Program-made: the position numbers and the translations under genes
Source: a virus
DNA length: 20,017 nucleotides
Reading direction: 5' to 3' (one strand)
Virus record (IMG/VR): IMGVR_UViG_3300025264_000152
Span: 1-20,017 of that record
In this document: one piece after another, positions 16,427 through 19,650 of the stretch
Layout of the letters: every line of letters begins with the position of its first letter
Numbering within the stretch: the stretch's first letter is position 1
Notes under the pieces: model-generated
Told to the model about the DNA's origin: nothing
The model's database searches: none
Seen by the model: the letters and a program-made list of their open reading frames with translations, nothing else

Positions 16427-16820
16427 GCTCTGCTCTCTCTAGTGTGTGTGTGTTAGAGTGTGCTAGTTTGCTAATTATGTAAGAGTTAGCACTCTTGCTC
16501 TCTATGCTCTCTATACTAGCTCTAGCACCTTCTTCAATAATCCCCCCAAAATTTAGGGGGGGTTTCAGTTTGTATTGATTGGGTCTCCCTTTTTTGGATT
16601 GGACAGTGACCCAGTCAAGTTCCTGTAGACTCCGTAAAGCTGTTCTAACGGTCTCTATGGAACGAAAACCACATCTGAGGCATAGACCCCTGTGTGAGGG
16701 TTTCGCGATCGCTGTGGATGGATTTGAGAACGAATAGAGGGTAATCAGGAGGAGACGCTCGGTTGAACCAAGGCGTTTGTCGTAAAAGATCTCACTCGGG
16801 ATCGGAATGTCCTTTTTCAT
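16224..16820 (-). CDS. Winged-helix replication-type protein; C-terminal half uncertain
   Basis: Residues 1-90 of 198 form a clear winged helix-turn-helix as in phage replication initiators and other helix-turn-helix_36-type proteins: IPSEIFYDKRLGSTERLLLI, CGFRSIETVRTALRSLQELD, then WVTVQSKKGRPNQYKL. After residue 88 comes PPLNFGG, coded by a C7/G6 tract, then a Ser/Glu/Ala-rich linker. The last 67 residues overlap another frame that looks more genuine, so the true C-terminus is unclear. The start overlaps the methyltransferase end by 29 bases with AGGAG nine bases upstream. Likely roles are origin or operator binding. Confidence 0.65.
   Translation of the reverse strand: MKKDIPIPSEIFYDKRLGSTERLLLITLYSFSNPSTAIAKPSHRGLCLRCGFRSIETVRTALRSLQELDWVTVQSKKGRPNQYKLKPPLNFGGIIEEGARASIESIESKSANSYIISKLAHSNTHTLERAEHARASKSCPEKIQLDQNETEGDHPGADRYVGRNPFDVLGEIFRRGYQEGMHESDGQNESLSTTGKRA
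16542..16562. repeat. C6/G7 homopolymer inverted repeat
   Basis: On the plus strand six C (16542-16547), eight A/T bases, then seven G (16556-16562). Six G-C pairs can form on either strand. It sits where the conserved winged-helix domain ends. On the plus strand it is followed by TTTCAGTTTGT, so it could stop rightward transcription; on the minus strand the long homopolymers are possible slippage sites. Confidence 0.45.
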
Positions 16821-17763
16821 TGAAATGCTCTCCTGTTAGAATTTCTTTTGCCCTCAGCAGCGGGATCATGGCGCACCTTGGAACAACCGCATTTCCTAAT
16901 CCTTTAAGTCTGTCCACCCGATTGGGTATCCCATGAGCCACTCGACCCACGTCGGGTTCAGTGAGCCACCTTTCAAAGTCATGGTTTCCGGAGTCCTCAA
17001 TGGGTTTCCTGACCCGCCCCATTCTCCAATCGTTCCAACTTGGTGTTTTCCTGGAGCAGTTGGTGTCGGCCATAGCTTTACTGAGTCTGTTAAGTTTAAT
17101 CCCCAACGGGTTTTCCCGTCTGGAGACATTCTTCCTTCCGGTGTCAGACGTTCTATCGGATTTCCTATTTCCGTTGCCCTCGGTGTCGGCCACATAGCAG
17201 ACGCACCACCACCTCCGCCTGAGATGAGGCGCTCCCACATCGGCTGCGGATACAACCTTCCACTCACAATGATACCCTCGTCCGGCCAGCTCCCCGTAAA
17301 CTCTTCTAGCCCAAGCTCCCCCGTCTCCAGAAAGCAGACCTGGGACGTTTTCCAAAACGAGAATTGGTCTAGCTCCGCAATAGGCGTAGACCTCATCCAC
17401 AATTCGGACAATCTCAAAGAATAGTCCGCTTCGATCCGCTTCAATGCCTCTTCGCGCTCCAGCGTCAGATAAGTCCTGGCACGGGAACCCGGCGGTGATG
17501 AGGTCGATCCTTCCTTCTCTGGGAATAAGGTCAACTGGGTGAAGTTTCCGGACATCCTTAAAAATTGGTATTCCCGGGAAGTTCTTTGCTAAAATCTTCC
17601 ATGTAAATTCCTCGTTATCACAGAAGGCAATCGTATCAAAACCGCCCACCCACCTGGCGGCCAGTGCAAACCCACCGATTCCGCTGAAGAGATCGAGATG
17701 GGTCAGGCATGGGTAAGATATCTTCTCCAGGGAGCTTAAATCTCCCTCACCTTCACGAGACAA
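16792..17763 (-). CDS. DNA C5-cytosine methyltransferase
   Basis: The 323-residue protein contains the standard motif order: motif I LDLFSGIGGFALAARW (23-38, SAM binding), the NFPGIPIFKDVRKL region, motif IV GFPCQDLSDAGARRGI with catalytic Cys95 and RSGLFFEIVRI after it, motif VI LVLENVPGLLS (ENV, 138-140), motif VIII GAPHLRRRWWCVCYVAD, a target-recognition region (about 195-265), and motif X RLKGLGNAVVP near 286-295. It would add a methyl group to C5 of cytosine in an unknown target, probably protecting phage DNA. Length is at the short end of the family. The start is TTG 17763 with AAGGG upstream; it overlaps the RusA-like gene by 28 bases. A second ORF in another frame covers 16896-17555. 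Confidence 0.92.
   Translation of the reverse strand: MSREGEGDLSSLEKISYPCLTHLDLFSGIGGFALAARWVGGFDTIAFCDNEEFTWKILAKNFPGIPIFKDVRKLHPVDLIPREGRIDLITAGFPCQDLSDAGARRGIEADRSGLFFEIVRIVDEVYAYCGARPILVLENVPGLLSGDGGAWARRVYGELAGRGYHCEWKVVSAADVGAPHLRRRWWCVCYVADTEGNGNRKSDRTSDTGRKNVSRRENPLGIKLNRLSKAMADTNCSRKTPSWNDWRMGRVRKPIEDSGNHDFERWLTEPDVGRVAHGIPNRVDRLKGLGNAVVPRCAMIPLLRAKEILTGEHFNEKGHSDPE
16896..17555 (-). CDS. Nested out-of-frame ORF with a conserved phage signature (WPTP / LNPxWVEWLMGxPIGWT protein)
   Basis: This 219-residue ORF lies wholly inside the methyltransferase gene on the same strand but in another frame. Its sequence reads like a protein family common in phage and environmental genomes next to DNA methyltransferases: N-terminal FTQLTLFPEKEGSTSSPPGS, then WKTSQVCFLE, EEFTGSWPDEGIIVSGRLYP, two WPTP motifs (MWPTPRATEIG, KLWPTPTAPG), a Gly-rich run, and the ending SLNPTWVEWLMGYPIGWTDL. 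The frame encodes this over the same DNA that gives motifs IV, VI, VIII and X of the enzyme. The start at ATG 17555 has only AAGG touching it, so expression is uncertain. The function is unknown. Confidence 0.5.
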   Translation of the reverse strand: MSGNFTQLTLFPEKEGSTSSPPGSRARTYLTLEREEALKRIEADYSLRLSELWMRSTPIAELDQFSFWKTSQVCFLETGELGLEEFTGSWPDEGIIVSGRLYPQPMWERLISGGGGGASAMWPTPRATEIGNPIERLTPEGRMSPDGKTRWGLNLTDSVKLWPTPTAPGKHQVGTIGEWGGSGNPLRTPETMTLKGGSLNPTWVEWLMGYPIGWTDLKD

Positions 17764-18333: not shown

Positions 18334-18852
18334 TTACAACGCCACCTCCGGCTGGGCGATCTCAGGTTCCTCCGTCTTCCAGGGAAGCTTCCTGCGCTCC
18401 CTGAAAACCATCTTCTTCAATGCAGCAGTCCTTGTAAGTGCATCGCTATGCTCCTTCTTCTGGTTGGAATCCAGAAACCGGGGATCCGTATGCACTAGTC
18501 GAGACAACCCTCTCCGCATCGCTTTCTTCAGCTCCTTATGCATTGCTTTCTCTGAAACTTCAGCCTGTTCCACGGCTGGGACGTACTTGTAGCCCATCCC
18601 AGGCTGCGATACCAGAAGCACCTTGTACTCCGAGAGGAGCAGCTCCTGGAAACGCTGGTTCTGAGTCATGTACGCGAGCTGAATCTGGTCAGCCTTACTC
18701 TTGAGTGTGTGTGGTTCAATCTTTTCCAGACCAAACTTTTCAAACAGCCACTCATGAGTGACAACGTCACCAGGCTCGAACTTCTCTGCAATAAAATCCT
18801 GCACGGCTTGCTTCCATGCAGGGAAAAGCATTGTTTCTTTTTCTTTATTCAT
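18334..18852 (-). CDS. Conserved phage protein of unknown function (172 aa)
   Basis: The protein reads MNKEKETMLFPAWKQAVQDF, then IAEKFEPGDVVTHEWLFEKF, then QLAYMTQNQRFQELLLSEYK, LVSQPGMGYKYVPAVEQAEV, and a long basic helical C-terminus (HKELKKAMRRGLSRLVHTDP). GDVVTHEW...F and a GMGYKYV-type loop suggest a small winged or compact DNA-binding domain followed by a helical tail. I recall it as a conserved hypothetical phage protein. The ATG at 18852 has GGAGAGGACC before it. Codons upstream of it in the same frame come from the pentanucleotide array and are not counted. Confidence 0.65.
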   Translation of the reverse strand: MNKEKETMLFPAWKQAVQDFIAEKFEPGDVVTHEWLFEKFGLEKIEPHTLKSKADQIQLAYMTQNQRFQELLLSEYKVLLVSQPGMGYKYVPAVEQAEVSEKAMHKELKKAMRRGLSRLVHTDPRFLDSNQKKEHSDALTRTAALKKMVFRERRKLPWKTEEPEIAQPEVAL

Positions 18853-18868
18853 GGTCCTCTCCGTTTGG

Positions 18869-19088
18869 TTTCCATTCCTTTCCCTTCCAGTCCTATCCAA
18901 TCCCTTCCGTTCCGATCCTATCCCGTCCCCTCCTCTCCCGTCCATTCCGCTCCGCTCCCTTGCTTACCAGTCCTTTGCGGTCCTTTCCCTTCCAGTCCTT
19001 TCCTATCCTCTCCCCTCCGTTCCGTTCCGTTCCGCTCCTCTCCAGTTCCTTCCACTGCGCTCCGCTCCAATCCGTTCCGCTCCACTCC
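18869..19088. repeat. Degenerate pentanucleotide array, 44 units of NNTCC (GGANN on the minus strand)
   Basis: The 220 bases divide exactly into 44 five-base units without a single indel. On the plus strand 39 of 44 units read NNTCC; exceptions are units 19, 20, 22, 36 and 38, each off by one base in the TCC core. The first two bases vary freely. Three locally longer repeats contain CCAGTCCT. It fills the gap between two minus-strand genes, ending one base from the upstream gene's stop and 16 bases before the next ATG, whose own GGAGAGGACC site looks like two further units shifted by one base. On the mRNA this is a purine-rich ladder of GGA every five bases. Confidence 0.85.
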
Positions 19089-19089
19089 A

Positions 19090-19650
19090 TTAAACAATCT
19101 CGAAACGTCCGTATCCATTCATTCGGTTCTCGCAGAGTCCCTCGATTTCACCGCCTAGACGGATGATGTCAAGAACCTCCTGCATATCCATGATCGCCTC
19201 ATTGACGAGGAGAGTGAACGTGAGTGCCCACTCCCTGAAAATCGGTCTGCAGCGCATTACCCTGGAACCCTGAACAACGACAGATCGGATATCGTGATAT
19301 CCGCCTGACTCCCACATCCGATCCTTGCTCTTTGGCCCGTTGTACTCAATCGGAACTTCAGGCTCCAGGATCTGCACTCCACGCTGAATGTGACGGCCGC
19401 GCCTGCTCAACTTCGCGGAGGATCGAATCGTAGCTTTTATTGCATTTCCCGGCATGATCGGAACATCCTTGAAATAGAGCCCTCCTTCCCATTCAATACG
19501 GAAAATCTGAGCCCAGTCATCATCCGTTTTCTTTCGTTTTGAGGTAAATTCAGCAATCTCCTTCTTTAACGGACTCAAAGGATTGGAAAGCAATTCCGCA
19601 TGAACCATGAGCGGACTCGTCCCTTTAAGTTTGATTTCCTCTCTCTGCAT
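19090..19650 (-). CDS. Conserved phage protein with RAMP-like Gly-rich end
   Basis: The 186-residue protein reads EIKLKGTSPLMVHAELLSNP, then KKEIAEFTSKRKKTDDDWAQ, then GLYFKDVPIMPGNAIKATIR, KLSRRGRHIQRGVQI, a conserved-looking VMRCRPIFREWALTFTLL, and the end NRMNGYGRFEIV. I know this as a phage protein found near single-strand DNA binding or recombination genes. The LxVxGxSPLMVH start and the GxGRFE end resemble the ferredoxin-like RAMP fold (Cas5/6/7 relatives), but no catalytic residue is evident, so this is a structural guess. AAGGAGAG lies before the ATG; that site overlaps the stop of the previous gene. Confidence 0.65.
   Translation of the reverse strand: MQREEIKLKGTSPLMVHAELLSNPLSPLKKEIAEFTSKRKKTDDDWAQIFRIEWEGGLYFKDVPIMPGNAIKATIRSSAKLSRRGRHIQRGVQILEPEVPIEYNGPKSKDRMWESGGYHDIRSVVVQGSRVMRCRPIFREWALTFTLLVNEAIMDMQEVLDIIRLGGEIEGLCENRMNGYGRFEIV

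What the first reader, a model, noticed from the sequence alone, without database searches (positions are those of the whole stretch)
18869..19088. Uninterrupted 44-unit degenerate pentanucleotide array between two genes
The five-base period never slips over 220 bases, and the GGA core on the coding strand is kept in 39 of 44 units, while the other two bases vary freely. Simple slippage would give identical units, and neutral decay would spare no position. This points to selection on GGA every five bases, or to a mechanism that adds such units. GG every five bases could form stacked two-layer G-quadruplexes with 3-nt loops; it is also a ladder of Shine-Dalgarno-like sites leading into the gene at 18852, and a long purine/pyrimidine tract.
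Basis: seen in the sequence. Interest (0 to 1): 0.85.

Follow-up and report, generated by a model that had tools for sequence, protein, structure and literature searches.

The report
Phage RNA-guide array beside CRISPR-like protein
The strange 220-base repeat is very probably the guide-RNA part of a VIPR system, a recently reported CRISPR-like weapon of phages in which only two letters of every five-letter repeat carry the address of the DNA target, and this copy differs from the published ones in its repeat core (GGA instead of GGC/GGT), its length and its place between the two protein genes.

Summary
In detail: 44 contiguous five-base units on the minus strand (19088 to 18869), 39 with an exact GGA, the other two bases free. 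It is far beyond chance and identical in five near-identical contigs. It is not a G-quadruplex array or a Shine-Dalgarno ladder. The gene just upstream (19090-19650, 186 aa) is a homologue of the phage SUSP1 Vipr protein (PDB 36pp, E=1e-26) with a Cas7-type RAMP fold. The gene just downstream (172 aa) is in the same PHROG as the gene that follows vipr in SUSP1, presumably vap1. The locus is therefore a VIPR system (Viral Interference Programmable Repeat; preprint of April 2026), whose guide RNAs alternate a GG-pyrimidine core with variable NN pairs that read DNA with a one-base skip. GGA/NN arrays occur in about 30 other viral contigs, nearly always beside a Vipr homologue (28/31, against 4/146 microsatellite contigs). 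Between related phages the NN bases change while GGA stays (39/236 against 4/354 substitutions). The variant features are a GGA core near GGY-type Viprs, 44 uninterrupted units (published 9-16), a position between vipr and vap1, and no visible tail. I found no target, so one-base-skip reading by GGA guides is inferred.

The parts
18869..19088 (-). vrRNA-type guide array: 44 uninterrupted GGA/NN units (39 exact GGA)
   Evidence: unit table; same array in five near-identical contigs; kin arrays in ~30 other contigs
19090..19650 (-). vipr gene: 186-aa RAMP (Cas7-like) protein, PHROG 4652
   Evidence: PDB 36pp_D 'SUSP1 Vipr protein' E 1.2e-26 over residues 5-185; AlphaFold2 pLDDT 94.7; Foldseek best hits Csm3/Csm subunits E 3e-7
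18334..18852 (-). vap1-like gene: 172-aa accessory protein, PHROG 5926 (same PHROG as the gene directly after vipr in SUSP1, Medea1, LESphi2, LittleE)
   Evidence: blastp 36% to the Medea1 and 26% to the SUSP1 protein
18853..18868 (-). 16-nt junction CCAAACGGAGAGGACC between the last unit and the ATG, with the Shine-Dalgarno-like site of the 172-aa gene; no vrRNA-type structured tail seen
   Evidence: sequence; fold

Best explanation
The array is the guide-RNA locus of a phage VIPR system. vipr, array and vap1 lie on one strand with almost no spacing, so they are probably transcribed together (inferred). The array RNA would be bound by a row of Vipr (RAMP) subunits. Each subunit holds one GGA and presents the adjoining NN for pairing, so that successive NN pairs read double-stranded DNA with one skipped base between pairs. 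The skipped base falls on the codon wobble position when the target is a gene. Binding would repress a competitor phage, satellite or prophage, helped by Vap1. Shown here: the array, the homology of both proteins to SUSP1 VIPR proteins, the RAMP fold, the tight association of GGA/NN arrays with Vipr genes, and conserved core with variable NN between related phages. Known for the GGY relatives from PMC13142463: RNP formation, one-base skip, repression, anti-phage effect. Inferred for this locus: expression, processing of the 44 units into one or several guides, the skip rule for a GGA core, and the target.
For: Vipr homology: 186-aa protein to PDB 36pp_D 'SUSP1 Vipr protein', E 1.2e-26 over its full length, 2e-40 with a family profile, with Csm5 next at 2.7e-5. 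RAMP fold: pLDDT 94.7; top 50 Foldseek hits nearly all type III Csm3-type Cas7 subunits, E 3e-7. Accessory gene: PHROG 5926 shared with the gene after vipr in SUSP1. Association: Vipr homologue in 28 of 31 contigs with high-entropy GGANN arrays against 4 of 146 with low-entropy repeats, Fisher p = 5e-25; nearly all arrays on the vipr strand, many starting 5-60 nt after the vipr stop. NN variable, core fixed: 39/236 NN against 4/354 core substitutions in homologous arrays (p = 9e-13). L067 and L197 are 99.4% identical over 8.5 kb, yet one array has 7/24 NN and 0/36 core changes. L118 and L162 have 98% identical Viprs, core 1/129 and NN 61/86. Target-free hint of the one-base skip: NN composition over 32 contigs fits codon positions 1-2 best, +31 log units over phase-averaged, correlation 0.71. 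Published mechanism: PMC13142463.
Against: No target found. Four 8-unit slices of the window array with a one-base skip gave only chance matches in IMG/VR, none extending beyond 9 units, and there was nothing in phages by decoded peptide. The published core is GGY, here it is GGA; the published text allows 'a related consensus' but the supplement could not be read. The array has 44 units against 9-16. There is no structured 3' tail. The codon-phase fit is only suggestive (bootstrap range -2.8 to 65, 18 of 32 contigs favour it). No RNA or binding data exist for this phage.
Confidence: 0.92

Rival explanations
1. A VIPR relic: the Vipr and Vap1 genes are of the VIPR family, but this 44-unit array is a decayed or fused remnant (several guides merged, tails lost) that no longer guides anything.
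For: Five off-core units in two clusters (7-9 and 23-26), no tail, length outside the published 9-16, no target found.
Against: Core kept in 39/44 units with no indel; long perfect arrays also occur elsewhere (37 and 32 units in L159, 41 in L179); both protein genes intact; array identical across five contigs.
Confidence: 0.12
2. Structural or regulatory DNA/RNA element: stacked two-layer G-quadruplexes, or a ladder of Shine-Dalgarno sites feeding ribosomes into the 172-aa gene.
For: GG every five bases and purine richness.
Against: Kin arrays with GGC/GGT cores are not Shine-Dalgarno-like. Arrays are tied to Vipr genes rather than to any one downstream gene, and end in various tails, including terminators and tRNA-like sequence. 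The 172-aa gene has its own Shine-Dalgarno-like site. A quadruplex would not explain changes confined to the NN positions in one of four arrays of otherwise 99.4% identical phages.
Confidence: 0.03
3. An ordinary degenerate microsatellite produced by slippage and mutation.
For: Pentanucleotide period; simple GGAAG-type repeats are common in viral contigs.
Against: NN entropy 3.6 bits of 4, no indel over 44 units, core conserved while NN varies between relatives, and a strong association with Vipr that low-entropy repeats lack.
Confidence: 0.01

Closest known systems
VIPR of Escherichia phage SUSP1 (bioRxiv 2026.04.26.720920, PMC13142463; PDB 36pp)
   Same: Vipr homologue, PHROG 5926 gene after vipr, tandem five-base units with fixed GG-core and free NN, phage-borne, same strand and order of genes.
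   Different: Core GGA instead of GGT/GGC; 44 uninterrupted units instead of about 12-16 per RNA; array between vipr and vap1 instead of outside the gene pair; no structured tail; no target known; about 33% protein identity.
Loci of Pseudomonas phages Medea1 and vB_Pae_LESphi2 (GGY arrays)
   Same: Medea1 has the most similar Vipr among named phages (41%) and the most similar Vap1 (36%); arrays of 11-12 units flank the gene pair.
   Different: GGC/GGT cores and short arrays with tails.
GGA/NN arrays beside Vipr homologues in other IMG/VR contigs (e.g. L159, L118/L162, L062, L067, L179)
   Same: GGA core, free NN, same strand as vipr, often starting 5-8 nt after the vipr stop; long arrays in L159 (37, 32) and L179 (41).
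   Different: Usually several arrays with conserved tails such as GGCT/GGTT..., and no PHROG 5926 protein detected beside their vipr.
Class 1 CRISPR-Cas effectors (Cas7/Csm3 RAMPs on crRNA)
   Same: RAMP fold; oligomer on a guide RNA with periodically skipped bases.
   Different: CRISPR uses contiguous spacers, a 6-nt period, repeats with spacers and adaptation genes; none of these is here.

Membership tests
VIPR system | Vipr protein: small (~20 kD) RAMP homologue | tested here: met
   186 aa; E 1.2e-26 to SUSP1 Vipr 36pp_D; Csm3-like fold
VIPR system | Tandem five-base repeats with conserved core and hypervariable NN next to vipr | tested here: met
   44 units, 39 exact, NN entropy 3.6 bits; hypervariable NN shown in relatives, not within this species
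VIPR system | Core is GGY 'or a related consensus' | tested here: inconclusive
   Core is GGA, not GGY; whether GGA is in the authors' 'related consensus' (fig. S17) could not be read
VIPR system | 9-16 repeats per vrRNA | tested here: not met
   44 uninterrupted units; the preprint also mentions staggered, overlapping vrRNAs, which could reconcile this. This figure describes studied examples and is not treated here as a strict criterion
VIPR system | Invariable 3' tail after the repeat tract | tested here: not met
   Only 16 nt before the next ATG and no clear structure; many kin arrays do have tails. Described by the authors for the vrRNAs they studied; the seven types differ in array architecture
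VIPR system | vap accessory gene | tested here: met
   PHROG 5926, same as the gene after vipr in SUSP1; that this SUSP1 gene is the authors' vap1 is inferred from its position in the operon
VIPR system | Phage-encoded | tested here: met
   Terminase, portal-type adaptor, capsid and tail genes in the same window
VIPR system | NN pairs read DNA with a one-base skip | tested here: inconclusive
   No target found; NN composition fits codon positions 1-2 best over 32 contigs
VIPR system | vrRNA expressed and bound by Vipr; target repression | not testable with these tools
   needs RNA sequencing and reporter assays
CRISPR-Cas Class 1 | CRISPR array with contiguous spacers, cas1/cas2, several cas genes | tested here: not met
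   no such repeats; no cas gene among the window proteins scanned (defence library scan of three proteins)

The most novel reading that the evidence does not exclude
A VIPR variant in which a GGA-core array of 44 units works as one very long, or several overlapping, tail-less guide(s) embedded in the vipr-vap1 operon. Reading one target of up to about 130 bp with a row of some 40 Vipr subunits would go well beyond the published 9-16-unit guides, and it would show that the core base that Vipr recognises has switched between A and Y several times.
Probability: 0.3. Interest if true: 0.75.

Novelty: new variant of a known kind. Interest (0 to 1): 0.62.

Why it matters
VIPR is a very recent addition to RNA-guided systems and is proposed to be older than CRISPR. 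This locus, found from the array alone, extends it to a phage known only from metagenome contigs, to a GGA core that appears in at least four separate parts of the Vipr tree in this sample, and to much longer uninterrupted arrays. It offers natural material to ask how Vipr reads the third core base (a lysine/arginine difference at position 107 of the window protein is a lead), how long a guide may be, and whether tails are needed. The pairs of near-identical phages with changed NN bases (L067/L197, L118/L162) show guide turnover in nature.

Tried and rejected
Targets: all GGA arrays of 8 or more units were scanned with skips 0-3 against 1.7 Mb of fetched flanks (both strands), with no excess for any skip. 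Four 8-unit slices of the window array were scanned over IMG/VR, with chance matches only. Two arrays of the Zixiibacteriota locus L213 were searched in 133 genomes, and two GGY arrays of Methylobacterium L207 in 111 genomes: none. As one genome per species is held, these negatives say little. Decoded 'codon' peptides were run against PHROGs, Pfam and phages with no significant match. Rfam had nothing credible. No consensus promoter was found. CsrA-decoy, G-quadruplex and Shine-Dalgarno readings were considered and dropped once the Vipr neighbour was identified. Several profile scans failed for lack of conserved stretches. The supplement of the preprint could not be read, so its seven types and 'related consensus' list were not compared.

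Full report
**Observation.** The minus strand of 18869-19088 consists of 44 pentamers in one phase, 39 with an exact GGA. Position 1 is G in 44/44, position 2 G in 40/44, position 3 A in 43/44, and positions 4-5 are free. The best score of the same kind in 200 shuffles of the window is 4, against 33 here. Five other contigs of practically the same phage (99.96-100% identical over 2.3-5.7 kb) hold the same array unchanged. It is therefore real and, in these samples, stable.

**Neighbours.** The array begins one base after the stop codon of a 186-aa gene (19090-19650) and ends 16 bases before the ATG of a 172-aa gene (18334-18852), all on the minus strand. The 186-aa protein matches PDB 36pp chain D, 'SUSP1 Vipr protein', with E 1.2e-26 over residues 5-185. 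A profile of its relatives finds the same chain at 2e-40, then Csm5 of type III CRISPR at 2.7e-5. Its AlphaFold2 model (pLDDT 94.7) matches Csm3-type Cas7 subunits first (E 3e-7). The 172-aa protein belongs to PHROG 5926, as does the gene directly after vipr in SUSP1, Medea1, LESphi2, LittleE and others. I take that gene to be the vap1 of the preprint; this is inferred from its place in the operon.

**What is published.** PMC13142463, the only paper in the library on the subject, describes VIPR. It consists of an ancestral RAMP protein, guide RNAs of 9-16 YNNGG repeats with a constant tail, NN pairs that read double-stranded DNA with one skipped base, repression of competing phages and satellites, seven types, accessory vap genes, and array forms that include staggered overlapping guides. 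It says all types use GGY/NN 'or a related consensus'.

**Breadth.** Searching IMG/VR for seven and ten GGANN units gave two classes: low-entropy microsatellites, and contigs whose NN pairs are nearly random. The second class often has many arrays with constant tails. A Vipr homologue lies in 28 of 31 such contigs against 4 of 146 of the first class (Fisher p = 5e-25). The entropy cut of 3.1 bits was chosen after seeing the distribution, and two or three of the four low-entropy positives also look like genuine arrays. Nearly all arrays lie on the vipr strand, many 5-60 nt after its stop codon. Named phages with Vipr (SUSP1, Medea1, LESphi2, Trine, MakoManhole, LittleE) have GGC/GGT cores.

**How the arrays evolve.** In seven pairs of homologous arrays, core positions changed at 4 of 354 sites and NN positions at 39 of 236 (p = 9e-13). 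L067 and L197, 99.4% identical over 8.5 kb, have three identical arrays and one with 7/24 NN changes and none in the core. L118 and L162, whose Viprs are 98% identical, have arrays that share core (1/129 changed) but not NN (61/86 changed). This is what guides under changing targets should look like, and it is not expected of a structural element.

**The code.** No target was found, so the one-base skip could not be tested directly for a GGA core. A target-free test was possible. If NN pairs are read every third base in a fixed codon phase, their composition should match one codon phase. Over 2,174 NN pairs of 32 contigs, positions 1-2 (skip on the wobble base) fit best, 31 log units better than the phase average and 197 better than positions 3-1. 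A single orientation per array improves it by another 20. The bootstrap over contigs (-2.8 to 65) keeps this at 'suggestive'.

**What is different here.** (a) The core is GGA, though the nearest Viprs on the tree are those of GGY phages. GGA appears in at least four separate parts of the Vipr tree. The contigs were picked by their GGA arrays, so frequencies mean nothing, but the scatter does. (b) 44 units without a break, against 9-16. Long runs occur elsewhere too (37 and 32 perfect units in L159, 41 in L179). (c) The array lies between vipr and the vap1-like gene. (d) No tail: 16 nt separate the last unit from the ATG. The five off-core units form two clusters (7-9, 23-26), and the units GGACT GGAAG GGAAA recur at 19-21 and 40-42, which could mark two fused guides; this is a guess.

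A Shine-Dalgarno ladder is not needed, because the 172-aa gene has its own GGAGAGG site. It also fails for the GGC/GGT relatives. The RNA has no stable fold (z -0.81). Quadruplexes do not explain the Vipr link or the NN turnover.

**Verdict.** This is a VIPR locus in a metagenomic phage, with a GGA-core, long, tail-less, intra-operon array: a new variant of a known kind. Family membership rests on the tested proteins and repeat form. Length and tail descriptions are not met, and the GGA core may or may not be in the authors' list. Function for this copy is inferred.

Noticed in passing
L202 3690-3848; L201 2969-3028; L205 2735-2793 and 4201-4389; L152 6972-7025; L067 6887-6956: Sequences after several arrays look like 3' halves of tRNAs (GGTTCGANTCC...). 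ARAGORN calls a doubtful tRNA directly after an array in L067, L197 and L202 but nothing in L201, L205 or L152. They may be tRNA-like guide tails or processing signals.
   Followed up: partly
window 19090-19650, residue K107: In ten GGA-type and twelve GGY-type Viprs the GPK/GPR motif is mostly K with GGA and mostly R with GGY; not corrected for kinship. Possible reader of the third core base.
   Followed up: partly
window 18709-19166 (+ strand) and 18893-19118, 18334-18945 (- strand): Long open frames through the array are spurious: a TCC/NN pentamer cannot form a stop codon in any frame of its strand.
   Followed up: yes
L062 10498-11778 and L158: About 20 consecutive arrays, most ending GGAAAGGAAC GGCTGTA, with arrays gained, lost and shared between two related contigs: a natural record of guide turnover.
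   Followed up: partly
L150, L167, L060: High-entropy GGA/NN arrays without a Vipr homologue on the stretch held; a more distant RAMP or one outside the stretch is possible.
   Followed up: partly
window 16792-17763 and 16896-17555 (- strand): A C5 cytosine methyltransferase gene with a long overlapping open frame in another phase; the overlap was not examined.
   Followed up: no
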